Shown here: piece after piece, positions 55,801 to 64,000 of the stretch
Layout of the letters: each line of letters opens with the position of its first letter
How positions within the stretch are numbered: the stretch's first letter is position 1
From: Ustilago trichophora
Lineage: Eukaryota > Basidiomycota > Ustilaginomycetes > Ustilaginales > Ustilaginaceae
Assembly: GCA_900323505.1 (NCBI GenBank)
Contig: OOIN01000034.1
Span: forward strand, 186,001 to 250,000
DNA: 64,000 nt
Direction: 5' to 3'
The notes under the pieces: model-generated
Told to the model about the DNA's origin: nothing
Databases searched by the model: none
The model's input: only the letters and a program-made list of their open reading frames with translations
Program-made: the position numbers and the translations under genes

Positions 55801-56169
55801 AAGATTGTAGGCAACGGCCTGGGTCTCTGCCTCGGCATTGTTCGACCCGCAGCCCTGCAAGGTAGCCAAGCTTCGTCGCTCATGGCCAACTTGTCGGCAG
55901 ACGAGCGTACCGAATGCTTGCTCGACTTGCACGGCTTGCATGCCAAAGAAGCAGTAGAGTTGACCGAAGAGTTTTTGCTTGGGCTAGAGGCCGAAGGCAT
56001 GCAAGGACTTGCGTACTTGGCAATTGGCAAAGGGAAGCATAGCAGCAAAGAGACGGACAAGAGGAGGGTCAAAGTGGGCGGCTTCATCAAGCAGTTTCTG
56101 AGCAGCTACTCGTATCCGTTTGCTGAGAGTGACGGTGTACTGGTGGTGGATCATTTGAGCCACTCGTAA
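52879..56169 (+). CDS. CUE-like, CCCH zinc-finger, DUF1771 and Smr domain protein
   Basis: A single exon of 1096 residues. The N-terminal 500 residues are Ser/Ala-rich and probably disordered. A CUE/UBA-like helical segment is at about 535-587 (PFDMLYSILV...QVDEALVMHNYDVEKTLNAIWE). Two adjacent CCCH fingers lie at about 673-724 (CRYYLAGECRRSDCRFSH and CRYWLKGHCAHNPCNFLH). DUF1771 follows at about 878-945 (HRGDVLSLAEQRNKLLARAS...AKKFSKEASSLN), then the Smr domain at about 1014-1093 with LDLHGLHAKEAVE and the AIGKGKHS loop. The Smr DxH motif and GxG loop are retained, so nuclease activity is possible. CUE plus Smr recalls yeast Cue2, the endonuclease of no-go mRNA decay, but Cue2 lacks CCCH fingers. 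Fungal CCCH-Smr proteins are known but poorly studied. Confidence 0.85.
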   Translation: MSTKQASYARSFLDSILVAKNASTTHPQSFSSNSTTATVNTTASSPSSSLATSTGGVAPLLTAAFKPHKPSSLSSSASASASEDGAAERDLSAYDAYLPSTLLSQPEFGDEHRNGNGVDDDDTSSIATSPPLSSSFKAHQLSIQALSHHRSFSTSSSRRTSTSAPTPDYTADIIGTLNDQHLDEEERIDKVRATLANALYAIEGVPSPSARIDNLVLDLMHRHREDVQPTGTQFSSNPNQSPVRRPASIRSFSTSRPWTPSRPSFSPASSFGTPTEVPASAFAVSQRPTSPHLGSSALASLTSPVWPSAASASASASASASASAPSPRPHPGVIGSGSPRASPRPWNRTLSNLSTTSLASSNGAAAAAGAASPMSSLPPGVIGSAGSRPASPSPFGSPKLNIGASEFKPRTASSTSTTVAAAALTPTRPATHLVRRPSSNASSTNLALANKSHAGAGDDDDDEFSPFGTIKPTQHQPLSYAGFTTYDPDAGWTSAQSFGGQNSHQSAWPNADPSNAFDPSESNGLGAEPTAPLTPFDMLYSILVTGTRAGSSEWSPEQVDEALVMHNYDVEKTLNAIWENEGKPLGDGTRSLLSGGPPAHRMHTGSLATNSPRFAPAQLPATAGVKAGVNVMSREALGLGSNRGQRPALSRSGSSQLAPRFEAAPSPSGPGANRVCRYYLAGECRRSDCRFSHDLDNRAVCRYWLKGHCAHNPCNFLHDYDALNQLATGIVSGLQVNDVYNQRSASTLEPSDSWGTSGAGNGAKEDFPVLGAASKDTPSKTSYAATLGGGSDASRNRWASTVQKKAPTDAVTRAQSDSQGAISIHSKAAPMRAQPGAGASEGKLPGKGAPAGPRASARIPLRPSALLPTLLTGSSAAETYQTHRGDVLSLAEQRNKLLARASEAYRKGDVASAKKFSKEASSLNHQYEDESRTAAHVIVKERLGELRSRLSDPNTSGSNAAAHSTEAGARNQRGKIVGNGLGLCLGIVRPAALQGSQASSLMANLSADERTECLLDLHGLHAKEAVELTEEFLLGLEAEGMQGLAYLAIGKGKHSSKETDKRRVKVGGFIKQFLSSYSYPFAESDGVLVVDHLSHS

Positions 56170-56597
56170 GATGGAAGGGAGGAGTAAAGGACAATACAAA
56201 GTAAAGTAGTAACCACGAACCAGACGCAAGGGATGTGTGAGATGAGCGATTTTGAGAGCTCGCGTGAGAATGTGAGAGATACTGTACACAGGAACTTTGA
56301 AGTTCGGGAAGCGGTGAAAGTGTTATGAAGAGCATCTTTGAGGCTTCTGCAGGGTCCAAGAGAATGAAAGCTAATCGAAGCGGGGGGTTTTTTTCTTTTC
56401 TTTTTTTTTTCTTTTCTTTTTTCTTTTTCGGCAGTCGGAGAACCTCGTCTTGTGCTTCTTGGCAACTTTGCGATTTTTCTTTGGACGTTCTTCCTCCACT
56501 TTCAGTTCTTCGCATCATCCTCTCCTCTTCCAACACCACTACCAACACCAACACCTTCTTTAAACTAGCCTCAGCACTACTCTCTTCTCACTTCTGC
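56170..56597. other. Short intergenic: CCCH-Smr 3' flank and PUS3 leader
   Basis: 428 bp. A T-rich block (TTTTCTTTTCTTTTTTT) lies at about 56391-56430. The frame of the next gene is open through this block, but the encoded Phe-rich stretch is not protein-like. Confidence 0.5.
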
Positions 56598-58838
56598 ATG
56601 GTCAATCTGCAAACAACTCTCCGAGTCCTGTCCACCTCAAGGAATCCACTTGCAACGCACTCACTCCGATTCCTCACCACCACCCACCTCTGCCATCGGG
56701 CCGACACCCAACTTCGCATCTGGCAACGTAAAATGGAAGCCAAAGAACGCTACCGAGACTGGAACAAAGAATCCCTTCTTTTGCGCATCGCAGAATTGGA
56801 AGCCCAGACCACTGCACTTCGTGCTGTACAAGCAAAAAAAGATACTGCCGCCCATGTTGCTTCGCTCACACCTGACTCGAGCACCACCAATGCATCTACT
56901 TTGATTGAAGAGGAGAACGCTCAAGATAAGCACACAGGAAAAGAGGCAAAGAAAAAGGCGAAAGGGGGAAAGAAAGAGAAGAAACCAAAAGAATTTGACT
57001 TTGCCACTTCTCCATGTCGAAAGATTGCCCTGAGATTCAGCTATGATGGGGCGGGGTATTCTGGACTTGCTGCACAAAATACCATTGGTGCAGGGTCCGG
57101 GTCTACTTTACCGACGGTGGAAGCGGTGTTGTGGGATGCGCTGTGTACGGCGAGATTGGTGGATCCAGCGATGGGAATGGATGGGGCGGGATTTAGCAGA
57201 TGCGGTAGAACTGATCGTGGAGTAAGTGCAGCCGGACAAGTCGTCGCACTTTGGGTTCGAAGTAAAAAGGTCAACCAGTGGCGTGCGCGTATCTCCCATA
57301 CCCAACAATTCTCTCCTTCCACCACCTCGTCGCCTCTCAGCAAACTGTCCCAAGAGGAGCTGGACCAACTCGAAGCGAAACAAAACACCCGATTGGAACC
57401 CGTCGAATTACCCTACGTTGCAATCCTCAATCGAATTTTACCTACATCGATTCGAATTCAAGCTTGGAGTCCCGTCAGATCCAATTTCAGCTCTAGGTTC
57501 GATTGCACCTACCGACACTACAAGTATTTCTTCCCTCGTGGTCCTCCAAAGCTCTTTTTCCCTCCCCACATCGACTCTTCGACTTGTTCAGCTGCTTCGA
57601 TCGATAGTGGAGCAACGAGATTGGACATTGAAAGCATGAGAGATGCGGCGAGGAGACTGTTGGGAGAGCATGATTTCAGGAATCTGTGCAAGATCGATGC
57701 AAGTAAGCAAATTACCAACTACAGGAGGAGGATTGATGGGGTTAGTATCGATCGGGTCTCTTCGCATTGGCCTACCAGTAGTGTAGTTGTGGAAGGAGAG
57801 GAAAACGAACAGGAGGGGGAAAGGGAGGAGATGTACGTATTGAATTTGAGAGGCACCGCGTTCTTGTACCATCAGGTGCGAAACATTATGGCGATCCTTT
57901 TCTTGGTCGGAGCACGATTGGAGAAACCTAACGTGATCGAGGAGTTGATGAATACCGAGCATGGTGCGATTGCTGCCGATAGGGTCAAGATGAGGTTGGC
58001 TGCAACCAGTGCATTTCGGCCTACTGCCAATTCAAAATTGGGCAACAACGACGGGTCACCGGTTGCACAAGAACAAGGAGAGGGAGCAATTAAATGGTGG
58101 CTTCCCGTAAACGCCACTTCCAATTCCACTTGCACCTCTTCTTCTTCCACTAGCAGCGCCATTGAAACACCTCAAGGGCTACCAATGTGGATTCAGACCA
58201 CCCTCAACGACGATCCTTCCACCCACCAGACCTCGGATTCTTCACTCGAGATATACGCAACCAAACCCAATTACGAAATGGCAGCGGATCGACCTTTAGT
58301 CCTATGGGAATGCGGATTCCTTCCCTCCGATGTTGAATGGCGTGTAGGACCCTATGATGGGTCTTTGGAGAAGATCTCTGCCGAGGAACAAAACGAAAAT
58401 CTCGCCACTGCTAGTAATAGCTTGTTAAGGGTCCATAAGAGTTGGACCCAACTCGCCATTAGTACCGAATTAACGAGACATTTCATCCTAGCTAGTCCTT
58501 CAGCTCAAAAAGGAACATTACCTAGTAGGACCACTTTTGAGGATGCTAGTTTTCCTTTTCTCCCAACAGCTCCTATCAACAACAATAGTATTGCTGAGGA
58601 ATTGCGACAAATGGAAAACAACAACAACAAAGGACAAGGCAAAGAAAATATTGCTCGAGGAGGTGTCATTCCTCTAGGTAATGGGACAGGTAGAGGAGCA
58701 TCCAATTACGTACCTCTCCAACAGCGTGCTAGGGAAGAGACGTACGAGGTGAAAAATCAAAGATGGGCTCAAACTACAGGTAAAAGAAGAGCCGAAAGAA
58801 AGGAGGCTGAATCGGGTGTCATGATAAGGGATGATTAG
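56598..58838 (+). CDS. DEG1: tRNA pseudouridine(38/39) synthase Deg1/Pus3
   Basis: A single exon of 746 residues from the ATG at 56598, or 701 residues from 56733. The enzyme makes pseudouridine 38 and 39 in the anticodon arm of tRNAs. TruA-family motifs: KIALRFSYDGAGYSGLAAQ, the catalytic aspartate in SRCGRTDRGVSAAGQ, FDCTYRHYKYFF, LLGEHDFRNLCKID and FLYHQVRNIMAILFLVG. The second ATG starts MEAKERYRDWNKESLLLRIAELE, the usual Pus3 beginning with its coiled coil. The 45 residues between the two ATGs are basic, hydroxylated and free of acid until a single Asp, like a mitochondrial presequence. A Lys-rich stretch at about 110-130 may be a nuclear signal. The C-terminal 230 residues, with PLVLWECGF, extend beyond most homologues. 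Confidence 0.93.
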   Translation: MVNLQTTLRVLSTSRNPLATHSLRFLTTTHLCHRADTQLRIWQRKMEAKERYRDWNKESLLLRIAELEAQTTALRAVQAKKDTAAHVASLTPDSSTTNASTLIEEENAQDKHTGKEAKKKAKGGKKEKKPKEFDFATSPCRKIALRFSYDGAGYSGLAAQNTIGAGSGSTLPTVEAVLWDALCTARLVDPAMGMDGAGFSRCGRTDRGVSAAGQVVALWVRSKKVNQWRARISHTQQFSPSTTSSPLSKLSQEELDQLEAKQNTRLEPVELPYVAILNRILPTSIRIQAWSPVRSNFSSRFDCTYRHYKYFFPRGPPKLFFPPHIDSSTCSAASIDSGATRLDIESMRDAARRLLGEHDFRNLCKIDASKQITNYRRRIDGVSIDRVSSHWPTSSVVVEGEENEQEGEREEMYVLNLRGTAFLYHQVRNIMAILFLVGARLEKPNVIEELMNTEHGAIAADRVKMRLAATSAFRPTANSKLGNNDGSPVAQEQGEGAIKWWLPVNATSNSTCTSSSSTSSAIETPQGLPMWIQTTLNDDPSTHQTSDSSLEIYATKPNYEMAADRPLVLWECGFLPSDVEWRVGPYDGSLEKISAEEQNENLATASNSLLRVHKSWTQLAISTELTRHFILASPSAQKGTLPSRTTFEDASFPFLPTAPINNNSIAEELRQMENNNNKGQGKENIARGGVIPLGNGTGRGASNYVPLQQRAREETYEVKNQRWAQTTGKRRAERKEAESGVMIRDD

Positions 58839-59066
58839 AAAGACGTTTTAGTGTGAATTTGTCTGTTTACTCATAACGTTCAACTTGGTGGAAATCTCAC
58901 ATCTGATCAACAGCTGAAGTAAGAAGTTTTTGAAAAACACAAAACAAAACAAAAAAAAGGGGGGGGGGGGGGGGATGAGGGGATAACTTGACTGAAGAAA
59001 AGTGTGTAAGTTATATGTGTGTTTGTATTGTGTCTCTTTCACGAGAGCATAGAGCTGTGTATGAAG
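58839..59066. other. Convergent 3' ends of PUS3 and the fusion gene
   Basis: 228 bp between two stop codons, with an A8 stretch and a 16-nt G run (58959-58974). It must hold both terminators. Confidence 0.5.
58959..58974 (+). repeat. Poly(G) tract, 16 nt
   Basis: Sixteen consecutive G after an A run, between convergent genes. Confidence 0.9.
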
Positions 59067-62000
59067 CTAAAATTTAATAGGCCCTTTGACTCGAGGAAAA
59101 GGTACAACATCCTTCACACTAACTGTATTAGTTACCCAAGCCAACAACCTCTCTAAACCCATACCAAAACCAGAATGCTGTACACCCCCTCCAAAAAGTT
59201 TCAAATCTTCAAGATACCAAGCTAACCTTTGCTTCACTGTATCATTACAACCCAAATCGAAAAGATTCCGCTCCAAACATCCACTTCGATATTCGCGTAC
59301 TGATCCACCCACCAACTCGCCCAAAGATGGAATGAGCAGATCAAAACATTCCACCAAAGTATCCCTTGCAGAAGAAGAAGAAGAACAAGAAGAAGGAGGG
59401 GCGCGCTTCATATAAAACGCCTTTTGAGAGAGTGGATAGTGTGTAACGAAAACAGGACCCAACGAAGAAGCTAAGAAACGTTCATGTTCGCTAGATAAAC
59501 CTTGATCAAGTTTGGGTTGAACAAGAAATGTTCCCTCTGGTGCAGAAGCGAGGAGAGAATGAGCTTCGTGATAAGTGATCCTCTTCCATTTCCCCTCAAC
59601 AACTCCCTTAAGAGTGGAAAGATGAGCTTGATCACCTAACAATTCCATATCCTCCACTCCTCCAAGAGTGTTGGAAATTCCTGCCTTAATCATCCCCTCA
59701 GTAACGTCCAGAATCCCATCCAAATCGGTAAAGTACATCTCTGCTTCAAGCATCCAAAATTCGCACAAGTGACGATTCGTCGCGCTACCTTCTGCCCTAA
59801 AGGCCGGATTCAAAGTCCATACCCTTCCCAAGCCGAGACCTGCCGCTTCAAGGTGAAGCTGCGACGAAACGGTGAGATAGGCCGAAGAGCCAGACCAAAA
59901 CGAAGTCAGAGGTTGCTTGGTGCGGACGTCGGATTCGGATACCACTTGAAACACTTCCCCCGCTCCCTCGCAGTCGCTCGAGGTTAAAATGGGACAGGCA
60001 ATTTTGACAAAGTCGTGCGAAGAGAGATAGTTCGACATGCCTTCTTCCAGTCTCTGTCGAGTGCGCGCTACTGCAGCGTAGCGAGGCAGCCGACCCAACA
60101 GATGTGGATTGCGTCGCTCAGAGAGGCTAGCGGAATAGCCGTTTTCTTCGACCGCCGTGCTGTTGTGTTGCATCTGTACGGCTGCTAGTGGATAAGTGAG
60201 GTCGCAACGGGAAAGCACTTCAACCGAGGTGGCATCCAATTCAATGGCTTGGCCCTTTTTCGTGCCACGTCCAGGTTTAAGATGTCCGGTGAGACGCAGG
60301 GCTGTACCGACGGTGAGACCTGCCAGACGATCGATCTCAGATGAAGGAGAGTCTTTAGAAGATCGGATCACTGCTTGGAGCGAAATTGGACCTGGGAGGG
60401 AGCCATCGGACAGTTCGAGAAAAGTTATTGATTTTTGTTTGCGCGTTGAGCGAAGCCAGCCAGTAACACTTACGGGGATGCGGTCCGAGGTGCCACTTTC
60501 AAAGGTGCTTTGTGCTCGGGCGAGGAGTTTCGAGAGAGATTCCGGTACCACAGTGGTAGCAGAAGCAGGGGCAGACGAAAGCCGAGTGCTGGTGGAAAAC
60601 CTTCGGAACGAATTGCCGAATTTGTCGCTCGCACCACCACCAGCTGCGTTATCCTTGCGCTTGCGGTTGCTGAGATTCTCTCCAAACATGTCGCGCTTGG
60701 TTCTTGGGCGCGAGGGACGGGCTGCATCGGCGGACGAAGGACCTGCGAAGGAAGACACCTCCTCCCAAGGCTTGGGTTTGGTCGATTTGCCGACTTCGAG
60801 CTCGCGCCAGATACCCTCAATGTCGTAGTTAAACCTAGCTTGTTCAGTCATAACGTGTACCATGCACCAATCGGCATCGACGAGGCACCAGTTGCCATCG
60901 CCCTTCTTGCCGCCCGTCTTGCTCTTGCTCGTGACGCCCAAACTCGAAGCATCGGACGCGGACATGACCAGACCCTCATATCGCACCGGCTGGATACCTG
61001 GCGTAGAATCCTCTTCCATCTCATCAAAGAGATCATCTTGTTCGATGGCGGGCGATTCACCTTCTTCCACCAGCTCGCTCTGTTCCTCTTGCATACGGCG
61101 GATCTCTGCAAGTTCCGACGATTCGCGCTCGGAAGCTCGTTCGGCCGCTCGGCGATCTTGCCTGCTCCTCACCTCTCCAGAAACGGCCCACTTGCCCGAG
61201 CGGAGGATGCGACGAATGCTCTCCGTAGAGACACGGAAGCGATTGCTCAGCTCCACGACGTCAAACTGCTCTGGATCGGAAGAGTGCAGCAGTCGAATAC
61301 CCTCCTGTGCCTCCCTTGAGAGGATCTTGGGCGGTCTCCAGCCATCCGGGAACTTCTTCTGGAGTGCGATGCGGTGGACGGCCCAGTCTGGCAAACTCTT
61401 TCCCAACTCGTGCTCGATGCGAGACATGCCCTTTGGTCGGGGAGGTGCCGCGGGGGTGGTTGGCTTTGGTGATGTCGACTTCTGATATCGTGGAGCGGAA
61501 GGTCCAGGGCCTAGATACTCGTCGAGATCGAGCTCAGTTTCCATCGCAGGCGGACGTGTATGTTTGAGGAAGCGGCCAATGTCGATAGCCACTCTGCGGA
61601 CACTGCCTGCAGCGCTGCTCTTGACTTGGACGACCACGATCCAGTCGTTGGTACCGTAAGCGTCGGAGCTGAGATCTTTGGAAAGAGATGCGGGGTGGAT
61701 GAGGGTGATAGGTGTGAGCTGGTCGTCCTCTTCGCTGGGGCGGGCTATCAAGTTGGCAGAAGGGCCGGAAACAAGATGCGACTTGAGCTTGGCGATGGCA
61801 TTAGGCTCCTCGACCTTGGGCGCGAGAGGGATGTAAGAAAATGTGTTGGTAGCTGTTGTTGTTTCGAGTTGCGCTGCATGGGTCGCTTCAGATGCAGGAT
61901 CTGCTGGTGCATCTATTGTCTCTGTCTGCAAGAACCAAGGGATCGCAGGGTCGGTGCCGCTAAGCTCATCGCTGATGTTGGAAGACTGAGCCGGTGCAGT

Positions 62001-62234
62001 GTTACCAAACGCATCTTCCTCGTCCTGGACTGCACGGCGAGGAAGCTGACGTGGAAAAGCTCTTGTGGAAGACGAAGTGAGCAAACGCTTGGAAGCGCTA
62101 ATCGGAGACTGAGTCGAATTGGCACGAGGTTGTGCGTTGATAACCGAATACAAAGTAGAGGCCACTTGAGCTACAGGCGCTGCAGAGCTACGCACAGTAC
62201 TTGCGGCAGACCATCTTGAAGCTCGAGCGAGCAT
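59067..62234 (-). CDS. Mitochondrial fusion: RsfS (Atp25-N type) with inserted neugrin/Rrg9 domain, plus asparaginyl-tRNA synthetase
   Basis: One uninterrupted frame of 1055 residues from the ATG at 62234. The frame reaches further upstream only through a GTG. Residues 1-65 are a basic, Ser/Ala-rich presequence. IPWFLQTE (98-105) recalls the mature start of Atp25. Residues about 172-228 (NDWIVVVQVKSSAAGSVRRVAIDIG) fit the first half of the RsfS/Iojap domain, and about 446-480 (NWCLVDADWCMVHVMTEQAR...YDIEGIW) its second half. Between them, about 280-350, lies a neugrin/Rrg9 block (WAVHRIALQKKFPDGWRPPK...LSNRFRVSTESIRRILRS). After a basic stretch (FRRFSTSTRL, 543-552) comes a full class II asparaginyl-tRNA synthetase: OB fold (587-680), motif 1 region with SDCEGAGEVF, motif 2 FRAEGSATNRHLCEFWMLEAEM, motif 3 GFGMGLERLLAW. 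Its yeast counterpart is Slm5. Each part is mitochondrial in other fungi but normally encoded separately. Confidence 0.85.
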   Translation of the reverse strand: MLARASRWSAASTVRSSAAPVAQVASTLYSVINAQPRANSTQSPISASKRLLTSSSTRAFPRQLPRRAVQDEEDAFGNTAPAQSSNISDELSGTDPAIPWFLQTETIDAPADPASEATHAAQLETTTATNTFSYIPLAPKVEEPNAIAKLKSHLVSGPSANLIARPSEEDDQLTPITLIHPASLSKDLSSDAYGTNDWIVVVQVKSSAAGSVRRVAIDIGRFLKHTRPPAMETELDLDEYLGPGPSAPRYQKSTSPKPTTPAAPPRPKGMSRIEHELGKSLPDWAVHRIALQKKFPDGWRPPKILSREAQEGIRLLHSSDPEQFDVVELSNRFRVSTESIRRILRSGKWAVSGEVRSRQDRRAAERASERESSELAEIRRMQEEQSELVEEGESPAIEQDDLFDEMEEDSTPGIQPVRYEGLVMSASDASSLGVTSKSKTGGKKGDGNWCLVDADWCMVHVMTEQARFNYDIEGIWRELEVGKSTKPKPWEEVSSFAGPSSADAARPSRPRTKRDMFGENLSNRKRKDNAAGGGASDKFGNSFRRFSTSTRLSSAPASATTVVPESLSKLLARAQSTFESGTSDRIPVSVTGWLRSTRKQKSITFLELSDGSLPGPISLQAVIRSSKDSPSSEIDRLAGLTVGTALRLTGHLKPGRGTKKGQAIELDATSVEVLSRCDLTYPLAAVQMQHNSTAVEENGYSASLSERRNPHLLGRLPRYAAVARTRQRLEEGMSNYLSSHDFVKIACPILTSSDCEGAGEVFQVVSESDVRTKQPLTSFWSGSSAYLTVSSQLHLEAAGLGLGRVWTLNPAFRAEGSATNRHLCEFWMLEAEMYFTDLDGILDVTEGMIKAGISNTLGGVEDMELLGDQAHLSTLKGVVEGKWKRITYHEAHSLLASAPEGTFLVQPKLDQGLSSEHERFLASSLGPVFVTHYPLSQKAFYMKRAPPSSCSSSSSARDTLVECFDLLIPSLGELVGGSVREYRSGCLERNLFDLGCNDTVKQRLAWYLEDLKLFGGGVQHSGFGMGLERLLAWVTNTVSVKDVVPFPRVKGPIKF

Positions 62235-62605
62235 CGTTACAACGCACTTGATTCTTGTCGAAGGTGGTGGACAGTAAGGATACCAAGACGAAGTTGGACA
62301 GGGATGACGGTTCTTCCAGAGACAGAAAATCAAGCGGCTGAGTTGCTCCACTTTTTCCTGAATTTCCCTGCGAAAAAGTGACTGTTGGCTGCATCTGAAT
62401 TACTAAGCATGACTTTGAGTGTACACTAAATAGGTGAGAAGGATTCCGTGCGACAAGGAATTGGAAATAGCGCGGGCGACGGTCACTGCTTCCAACCCAA
62501 ACGATTTCGGCATTTCTCGTCGTCGTCGATGTTGAGCAACACCAACGTTTGTTTGACTCTCACCCATCTACCCGGTCCTTCACCCCCACATATACATACA
62601 ACAAG
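62235..62605. promoter_or_regulatory. Divergent promoter of the fusion gene and the complex I subunit
   Basis: 371 bp shared by two nuclear genes for mitochondrial proteins. An ATTGG (reverse CCAAT) lies at about 62460-62464. No TATA box is evident. CCAAT control is common for respiratory genes, but one such pentamer is weak evidence. Confidence 0.4.
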
Positions 62606-63469
62606 ATGCGTGAGTATTTACAGCACAGCACCACAGCGACACAAAGCATGATACATATAAGATCTTGTCGAAAACCGCCATCTCTGGGAAGCGCCAGCAT
62701 TGCCTCGAGCCAAGATCATGCGCAAGGATTCCCTATGCACGCAGAACATCGTACTTACCAAAATCACCACCGCTGCTTTTCATAAACTTGTGCACATCCC
62801 CCTTTCGTAGCCGTCAAGCAACTCGACACGCCATACCCGGTCATTGATGCCGATCCACACTTTTCGCGAGTCGTTCGCAGTTTCCGCGGCTCCGACTATG
62901 CCGCCATGGCAGGAGCCACCGCAGCTTTCCCCTCGGCCATCTACCTGATGGAGATGTTTGATCCAACACGACCCAAGCGCGGTCTCGGTAGTGCTCTGCG
63001 TCTGTCGACATTCCTGGGTCTTTGTGGTGGATTCCTGTTCGCATATCAGAGGACATCGTTCCGTTTCTGGGGCTGGAAGGAGAACGAGATTGAGCAGGCG
63101 GCCAACCAGGCTGCTCTGGATGCCGGTATCAAGCCTCCTGGTACCGACCCTAGCAAGAGCGACCTCACCCCTTACATGCAGGGCGTTGCTCACAGGAACA
63201 GCGCCTTCTCCCAGTTGAAATTCAGTAAGTTCTGCTCAACGTACTCGATAGAGCTCACGTCAACGCTTTCGCATTTGCATTAATGTCACCTTAAGCAGTG
63301 ACTCAAGATTGACTTGGTCCCAAATCAATCGCTTGACCTGAAACCATTACTGACATCGTACTGCTCGCAATACTCTGTTACCCCTCACTCTGTCACAGGC
63401 ACGCTCCCTTGGTTCAACTTGGTAGACCACCCATACCACGGCGGCAACAACTCGCAGGAGTCGTCCTAA
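62606..63469 (+). CDS. Complex I accessory subunit (fungal 21-kDa NADH:ubiquinone oxidoreductase subunit)
   Basis: Three exons: 62606-62609, 62811-63224 and 63399-63469, with introns GTGAGT..GTAG (201 nt) and GTAAGT..ACAG (174 nt), give 162 residues. The first coding exon has only four bases, ATG plus C, and the splice produces MPVKQLDTPYPVIDADPHFSR, the typical opening of the fungal 21-kDa subunit. A hydrophobic stretch (about 75-95, LRLSTFLGLCGGFLFAYQRT) suggests a membrane helix. The C-terminal block STLPWFNLVDHPYHGG, coded by exon 3, matches the family's second conserved domain. It belongs to the N. crassa 20.9/21-kDa type. It is divergent from a gene for mitochondrial translation. Confidence 0.9.
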
Positions 63470-64000
63470 AGTGGCCACGGCTCCAACTCAAACTCTCATA
63501 TCTTTTCGCTTCTTTTGTGTCCACTTGTGACTCTATTTGAATGAGAAGATTGGTTTCACTAGATCCTCCCTTTGCATCGGATTTCCTGTCTTGGATGATT
63601 TGGCTCGATAGCAAATTAAGCGCTGCCGTGAGATTGAATGGAGAGAACAATGGGAAATGTTGGGAGAAGATCTTGAGTCATCGGGCCACTTGTGAAGGTC
63701 TCTGTCTCTTCGGAAGGGGACCGCATTGCATCGCTCAAATTGACTGTGTGAAAAAGCGTGATTCGGCAAGCTTCCGACATCAACACAATCATTCGAGCAC
63801 CTTTTCTCGGGCGCTGACGTCTCACGCAACTGTTCATGGCTGAACCAGATACACAACGTCAAACGCTAAGAAAAATGAGTTTAGACGTTGCGCATGAAAG
63901 AAAAAGTCGAATAAAAATACAAGTGTATGGACAGGATGACTTGTCACTCTTGCAGAAGCCGTTTTGACAGCCAGTCCATGCAACTGAAATGGGATGTCTT
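63470..64000. other. 3' flank of the complex I subunit gene to window end
   Basis: 531 bp with no supported exon on either strand. It contains an AATAAAAA motif near 63890 that could serve as a polyadenylation signal. A gene beyond the window may begin here. Confidence 0.45.

What the first reader, a model, noticed from the sequence alone, without database searches (positions are those of the whole stretch)
59067..62234. One polypeptide joins RsfS, neugrin/Rrg9 and mitochondrial asparaginyl-tRNA synthetase
Seen: one 1055-codon frame without stop or needed intron carries a presequence, both halves of an RsfS domain, a neugrin-like block and a complete AsnRS. Known: RsfS-type proteins block or assist joining of the large ribosomal subunit; Rrg9 is needed for mitochondrial gene expression; Slm5 charges mitochondrial tRNA-Asn. 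In yeast RsfS is already fused to another protein in Atp25 and cut after import. Inference: this is a distinct fusion coupling mitoribosome assembly and tRNA charging, either as a working complex or as a way of making matched amounts.
Basis: partly seen in the sequence, partly recalled or inferred. Interest (0 to 1): 0.88.

Follow-up and report, generated by a model that had tools for sequence, protein, structure and literature searches.

The report
RsfS–neugrin–asparaginyl-tRNA synthetase fusion
A fungal gene encodes one long mitochondrial protein that joins part of a ribosome-assembly factor, an rRNA-helper (neugrin) domain and a complete asparagine-tRNA charging enzyme, and it is probably cut into separate working proteins after import into mitochondria.

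Summary
The fusion is real. One intronless 1055-codon frame (window 59067-62234, minus strand) carries Pfam matches above curated cut-offs to RsfS (last 39 of 98 profile positions), neugrin, an OB-fold and a class II synthetase; NCBIfam calls it AsnRS. A second copy on another contig (89% identical, dS about 0.5) is also one frame with the same domains in the same order. Six-frame searches found no other RsfS or neugrin; a separate AsnRS, probably cytosolic, exists. Not confirmed: the first half of RsfS (residues about 165-240) is recognised by no profile, and two low-confidence models did not settle it. The linker before the AsnRS has no stop and, in both copies, an R-x-F|S-T presequence-cleavage motif, weak evidence alone (8-10% of shuffles). 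Best reading: a composite mitochondrial precursor like Atp25, Arg5,6 or Rsm22-Cox11, probably cut on import into an RsfS-neugrin factor for the large mitoribosomal subunit and a free mitochondrial AsnRS. The kind is known; this partner set did not show up in my ten paper searches. Whether other fungi share it could not be tested.

The parts
59067..62234 (-). whole fusion ORF, 1055 codons plus stop; first ATG of the frame at 62234
   Evidence: second copy L004:1501-4659, 1052 residues, 89% identical
62079..62234 (-). N-terminal presequence-like stretch, residues 1-52, ending in RLL|TSSSTR
   Evidence: no D or E before residue 71 (sequence; 30-residue windows from 29 on); fast-evolving, NG86 dN 0.135, dS 0.451 for residues 1-60
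61926..61943 (-). IPWFLQ, residues 98-103, like VPWYLQ of Neurospora Atp25
61515..61742 (-). candidate N-terminal half of RsfS, residues 165-240 (unconfirmed)
   Evidence: no Pfam match for 130-245; yeast Atp25 alignment at 197-225 reached by 11 of 1000 shuffles of 165-240, Neurospora Atp25 by 719 of 1000
61059..61334 (-). neugrin/Rrg9 domain, residues 301-392, between the candidate N-half and the C-half of RsfS
   Evidence: PF06413 37.5 bits, cut-off 24, 41.2 bits as a fragment; NG86 dN 0.014, dS 0.502 for residues 269-360
60807..60926 (-). RsfS C-terminal half, residues 437-476
   Evidence: PF02410 30.8 bits, cut-off 21.6, 35.3 bits as a fragment; W449, D453, Y470 in the places of the uL14-contact residues W77, D81, Y98; NG86 dN 0.007, dS 0.635 for residues 421-485
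60495..60779 (-). linker, residues 486-580
   Evidence: 79-92% nucleotide identity between copies in 20-codon bins, one 3-base indel
60591..60605 (-). RRF|ST, residues 544-548, possible MPP/Icp55-type cleavage site; RSF|ST in the second copy
   Evidence: motif as described in PMC8847149 (passages); 1631 and 2036 of 20000 linker shuffles also contain it
60213..60473 (-). OB-fold anticodon-binding domain of AsnRS, residues 588-674
   Evidence: PF01336 29.8 bits, cut-off 27
59088..60113 (-). class II AsnRS catalytic domain, residues 708-1049
   Evidence: PF00152 200.3 bits, cut-off 25; TIGR00457 348.4 bits; motifs

Best explanation
A composite mitochondrial precursor. One mRNA is translated into one protein, which is imported by its N-terminal presequence (inferred). 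In the matrix, MPP (then perhaps Icp55) removes the presequence and also cuts in the linker at RRF|ST, which looks like the old presequence of a formerly separate AsnRS gene (inferred). Products: (1) an RsfS-neugrin protein that binds uL14m on the immature large mitoribosomal subunit, keeps the small subunit away, and brings a helix-turn-helix-type neugrin/Rrg9 domain to the large-subunit rRNA (inferred from the families); (2) a free mitochondrial AsnRS that charges tRNA-Asn (inferred). The fusion, domains and order are shown; cleavage, products and location are inferred. The benefit may be equal dosage, or, as proposed for Atp25, keeping RsfS inert in the cytosol.
For: Domains above curated cut-offs. 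Two collinear copies with the same fusion and dS about 0.5, so it is not an assembly join and is older than the split of the copies. No stop in frame before the AsnRS in either copy, and a linker conserved at 79-92% with one 3-base indel. Only these two RsfS and two neugrin matches in the genome. Another AsnRS on C34/C28 can serve the cytosol, leaving this one as the likely mitochondrial enzyme. Three of four uL14-contact residues kept. R-x-F|S-T motif in both linkers. Precedents: Atp25 is an RsfS part plus a C-terminal domain, cut during import in yeast, with the RsfS part seen on uL14m in Neurospora (PMC7560712 passages); MPP cuts Arg5,6 internally, and Atp25 and Rsm22-Cox11 carry predicted internal signals and sites (PMC8847149 passages). 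Neugrin belongs to a human module that sets 16S mt-rRNA level (PMC5377769 and PMC6540609 passages).
Against: The cleavage motif appears in 8-10% of linker shuffles, and another match sits inside the catalytic domain at 919. The 27 residues before the site hold two acidic residues in each copy, so it is not a clean presequence. Linker conservation is not unique: noncoding DNA upstream of the gene reaches 75-84% in several bins, and an open 95-codon linker arises in 820 of 5000 Markov sequences. The first RsfS half is unproven; without it the RsfS could be a remnant. Neither structure model gave a PDB match at E 0.001 or better.
Confidence: 0.6

Rival explanations
1. The protein stays in one piece and works as a bifunctional factor: AsnRS is held at the large mitoribosomal subunit during assembly, linking charging to subunit joining.
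For: One frame in both copies; no proof of cleavage was obtained; the second half of the linker (531-580) evolves like a free spacer (NG86 dN 0.132, dS 0.236).
Against: The best studied fungal RsfS fusion, Atp25, is cut on import in yeast and only its RsfS part is seen on the Neurospora ribosome (PMC7560712 passages); a cleavage-type motif sits in the linker of both copies.
Confidence: 0.17
2. Two products from one locus at the RNA level: an internal start (for example at Met516, window 60689) or alternative splicing yields AsnRS alone with its own presequence.
For: Met516 is present in both copies and lies before the R/S-rich stretch; frame +1 of the linker is also open in both copies.
Against: The upstream part has no stop of its own in frame; the residues after Met516 include acidic ones; no RNA data were available.
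Confidence: 0.15
3. The RsfS portion is a decayed remnant: only the C-terminal strands and helix survive, and the protein is a neugrin-AsnRS fusion without ribosome-silencing function.
For: No profile support for the N-terminal half.
Against: RsfS-C is the slowest-changing segment of those measured (NG86 dN 0.007, dS 0.635); uL14-contact residues W, D, Y kept; no other RsfS match in the genome; residues 181-240 are conserved too (dN 0.045, dS 0.443).
Confidence: 0.08

Closest known systems
Atp25 (Saccharomyces, Neurospora)
   Same: RsfS-type domain at the N-terminal side of a longer mitochondrial precursor, with a second functional part behind it (PMC7560712 passages); a PW(Y/F)LQ motif before the domain in Neurospora
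   Different: Atp25 carries an M-domain at the C-terminus; here the partners are neugrin/Rrg9 and AsnRS. The M-domain (PF13929) was not found in this genome, but that search rang in no control genome either, so it says nothing
Composite precursors Arg5,6 and Rsm22-Cox11
   Same: Two proteins in one precursor with an internal signal and cleavage site between them (PMC8847149 passages)
   Different: Other proteins; MPP cleavage was shown for Arg5,6, here it is only predicted
MALSU1 / bacterial RsfS
   Same: C-terminal half with W, D and Y of the uL14 contact
   Different: Those are short proteins (chains of 105 to 234 residues, a trypanosome one 349); here neugrin lies inside or beside the domain and AsnRS follows
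Neugrin / Rrg9
   Same: PF06413 match over cut-off
   Different: A separate protein in yeast and human (recalled); here embedded in a fusion
Slm5, yeast mitochondrial AsnRS
   Same: AsnRS by profile and presumed role
   Different: Slm5 is a separate protein (recalled); not compared by sequence here

Membership tests
AsnRS (class IIb) | asnS profile over cut-off | tested here: met
   TIGR00457 348.4 bits, cut-off 342.6; 368.1 in the second copy. The other Asn model, NF003037, was below its cut-off in both (349.9 and 367.2 of 414)
AsnRS (class IIb) | OB-fold and class II motifs 2 and 3 | tested here: met
   (motif patterns recalled)
AsnRS (class IIb) | charges mitochondrial tRNA-Asn | not testable with these tools
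   needs an enzyme assay
Neugrin/Rrg9 | PF06413 over cut-off | tested here: met
   37.5 bits, cut-off 24; the mL58 model (PF12824) stays below its cut-off here (23.1 of 30.4) and has its own genes on C3/C4
RsfS / MALSU1 / Atp25-N | PF02410 over cut-off | tested here: met
   30.8 bits, cut-off 21.6, profile positions 60-98 only
RsfS / MALSU1 / Atp25-N | full-length rsfS equivalog profile (TIGR00090, a prokaryote model) over cut-off | tested here: not met
   28 bits, cut-off 56.9, positions 66-99 of 99; so I file it as an RsfS-related protein, not as a proven RsfS
RsfS / MALSU1 / Atp25-N | complete RsfS fold including the N-terminal half | tested here: inconclusive
RsfS / MALSU1 / Atp25-N | uL14-contact residues E70, W77, D81, Y98 | tested here: inconclusive
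   W, D, Y kept; the place of E70 is uncertain because YEG at 419-421 lies 28 residues before W449
RsfS / MALSU1 / Atp25-N | binds the large mitoribosomal subunit | not testable with these tools
   needs biochemistry
Composite mitochondrial precursor cut by MPP | N-terminal presequence and internal signal with cleavage motif | tested here: inconclusive
   present by composition and motif, but the motif occurs in 8-10% of linker shuffles
Composite mitochondrial precursor cut by MPP | actual internal cleavage | not testable with these tools
   needs import assay or N-terminomics

The most novel reading that the evidence does not exclude
The neugrin/Rrg9 domain is nested inside the RsfS fold, making one factor for large-subunit rRNA and subunit joining, and it stays physically linked to AsnRS so that asparagine charging and mitoribosome assembly are coupled.
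Probability: 0.1. Interest if true: 0.82.

Novelty: new variant of a known kind. Interest (0 to 1): 0.55.

Why it matters
RsfS in ascomycete fungi is fused to an unrelated C-terminal domain in Atp25. A second fungal RsfS fused to different partners would suggest that RsfS itself favours life in a composite precursor, which is what the 'keep it inert in the cytosol' idea predicts. It also ties neugrin/Rrg9, listed among proteins of unknown function in yeast in the paper seen (PMC7453639 passages), to RsfS and so to the large mitoribosomal subunit: a testable guess for what Rrg9 does.

Tried and rejected
Assembly or annotation artefact: rejected, because a diverged, collinear second copy carries the same fusion. 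The block being mL58 (MRP-L20) rather than neugrin: rejected, below cut-off, and mL58 has separate genes.

RsfS N-half: the N-half profile from 85 RsfS sequences reported neither copy in this region, and in the list of the 1000-shuffle file, which I cut at 30 lines, shuffles came first and the fragment did not appear; the table of counts in that call came out empty. hhalign gave probability 0.5% and a wrong register. An Atp25 profile (two sequences) scored the window protein at -0.4 bits, with shuffles above it. Pooled local alignments of 87 strand-helix cores: best placement starts at residues 190-219 for 44 of 87, but 26 of 200 shuffles reach the pooled score. MAFFT placed the bacterial N-half in the neugrin block and the coil behind it, not at 165-240, which speaks against the idea or shows how weak the similarity is.

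No relatives in viral contigs. Spread in other fungi could not be tested: the protein database was off, the genome has no relatives held, and the other collections are prokaryotic, viral or plasmid. The ten paper searches showed no title or abstract start naming this fusion; I saw listings, and passages of eight papers, no whole text.

Full report
Observation. The minus-strand frame 59067-62234 is 1055 codons from the first in-frame ATG to the stop. Pfam finds neugrin (301-392), the C-terminal part of RsfS (437-476), an OB-fold (588-674) and a class II synthetase (708-1049), all over the curated cut-offs; a fifth family, MRP-L20 (mL58), matches weakly below its cut-off. NCBIfam names it asparagine--tRNA ligase (TIGR00457 348.4 bits, cut-off 342.6); a second asparagine model, NF003037, and the rsfS model stay below their cut-offs.

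Second copy. The genome held (38.8 Mb, 45 contigs) has a second copy on contig C35, 89% identical in protein, 1052 residues in one frame, same Pfam domains in the same order, with collinear flanks over 8 kb. Over 1043 codons dN is 0.062 and dS 0.526 (NG86; YN00 dS 0.433). So the fusion is not an assembly join and predates the split of the two copies. In the second copy an in-frame ATG lies 16 codons upstream of the start used here, so its N-terminus is less sure.

Other genes. The RsfS model matches 2 places and the neugrin model 2 places in the genome, in both cases only the two fusion copies. The mL58 model has its own genes on C3 and C4. A separate AsnRS lies on C34 and C28 at 33% identity; the C34 gene scores 418.7 bits with TIGR00457. 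I take it as cytosolic (inference; no targeting test was made). These searches ignore introns, so a split or very diverged gene could be missed.

Constraint along the protein (NG86 dN/dS values): presequence 1-60 0.135/0.451; 181-240 0.045/0.443; neugrin 269-360 0.014/0.502; RsfS-C 421-485 0.007/0.635; linker 486-580 0.101/0.290; OB 0.038/0.470; catalytic 0.081/0.822. YN00 failed on several short segments and gave high ratios for the coil 361-420 (0.89), the Pro-rich stretch 241-268 (0.53) and the linker (0.52). In the linker, substitutions fall 9, 10 and 18 on codon positions 1, 2 and 3. Linker nucleotide identity is 79-92% with one 3-base indel. The bins just downstream of the gene are at 33-50%, but noncoding bins upstream of it reach 75-84% (one 24%, at a long A-run), so nucleotide conservation alone does not prove the linker coding. 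An open 95-codon linker is not telling either: 820 of 5000 Markov sequences were open. The argument for one polypeptide is that the upstream domains have no other stop, in both copies.

RsfS halves. The C-terminal half is secure and keeps W449, D453 and Y470, in the places of W77, D81 and Y98 that touch uL14 in S. aureus RsfS (PMC9503621 passages). The N-terminal half is not shown. Pfam: 0 families for residues 130-245. Profiles of RsfS and Atp25 did not pick it out. Yeast Atp25 aligned at residues 197-225 with a score reached by 11 of 1000 shuffles (segment 165-240), 33 (130-245) and 52 (91-300); Neurospora Atp25 gave 719, 865 and 25, the last through the motif PW(Y/F)LQ at 99-103. Both models predict two strands at protein residues 199-205 and 212-218; RsfS would have a strand and then a helix there (recalled), and confidence is low.

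Linker. Both copies hold R-x-F|S-T (RRFST at 544, RSFST at 546), matching the cleavage consensus R-x-(F/Y/I/L)|(S/A)(S/T) given for Icp55 in PMC8847149 (passages). Shuffles contain it in 1631 and 2036 of 20000. It stands between the RsfS-neugrin part and the AsnRS, followed by an S/T-rich stretch as after the N-terminal RLL|TSSSTR. Evidence is suggestive only.

Mechanism. PMC7560712 (passages) describes Neurospora Atp25 of 699 residues: RsfS part plus M-domain, cut during import in yeast, RsfS part on uL14m of an immature large subunit, blocking the small subunit; it reports the idea that the fusion protects cytosolic ribosomes. PMC8847149 (passages) reports internal MPP cleavage of Arg5,6 and predicted sites in Atp25, Rsm22-Cox11 and others. 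PMC3400551 (passages) reports that RsfS proteins bind L14 in bacteria, human mitochondria and maize chloroplasts. Human neugrin belongs to a module that sets 16S mt-rRNA level (passages of PMC5377769 and PMC6540609). In yeast, loss of Rrg9 or Slm5 goes with loss of mtDNA (PMC2768984 passages), as blocked mitochondrial translation does according to the same passages. Hence RsfS and neugrin plausibly act together on the large subunit, while AsnRS is most simply a passenger released by cleavage. All of this is inference from families and precedents.

Verdict. A real, conserved fusion with an unusual partner set, of a known kind (composite mitochondrial precursor). The nested RsfS-neugrin arrangement and any coupling to tRNA charging remain open. 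Spread in other fungi is untested.

Noticed in passing
whole genome G000; window 56032-64000 against L101: The assembly seems to hold two diverged copies of this gene and of the other genes that rang; over 8 kb at this locus they are 78-84% identical in DNA, as in a hybrid, a dikaryon of unlike nuclei or a mixed sample.
   Followed up: partly
56325-58838 (+): Tail-to-tail neighbour: tRNA pseudouridine synthase (PF01416) with a long low-complexity N-terminus; the true start is uncertain.
   Followed up: no
62906-63280 (+): Head-to-head neighbour: part of the 21 kDa subunit of respiratory complex I (PF10785), so two genes for mitochondrial proteins share an upstream region.
   Followed up: no
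59090-59672 (residues about 855-1048): The later part of the AsnRS catalytic domain is much less alike between the copies than the rest (64-77% nucleotide identity with indels, against about 90% just before); cause unknown.
   Followed up: no
L004, about 120 bases before position 1501: The second copy has a long A-rich run upstream of the start codon and an extra in-frame ATG 16 codons upstream; the window copy lacks both.
   Followed up: no
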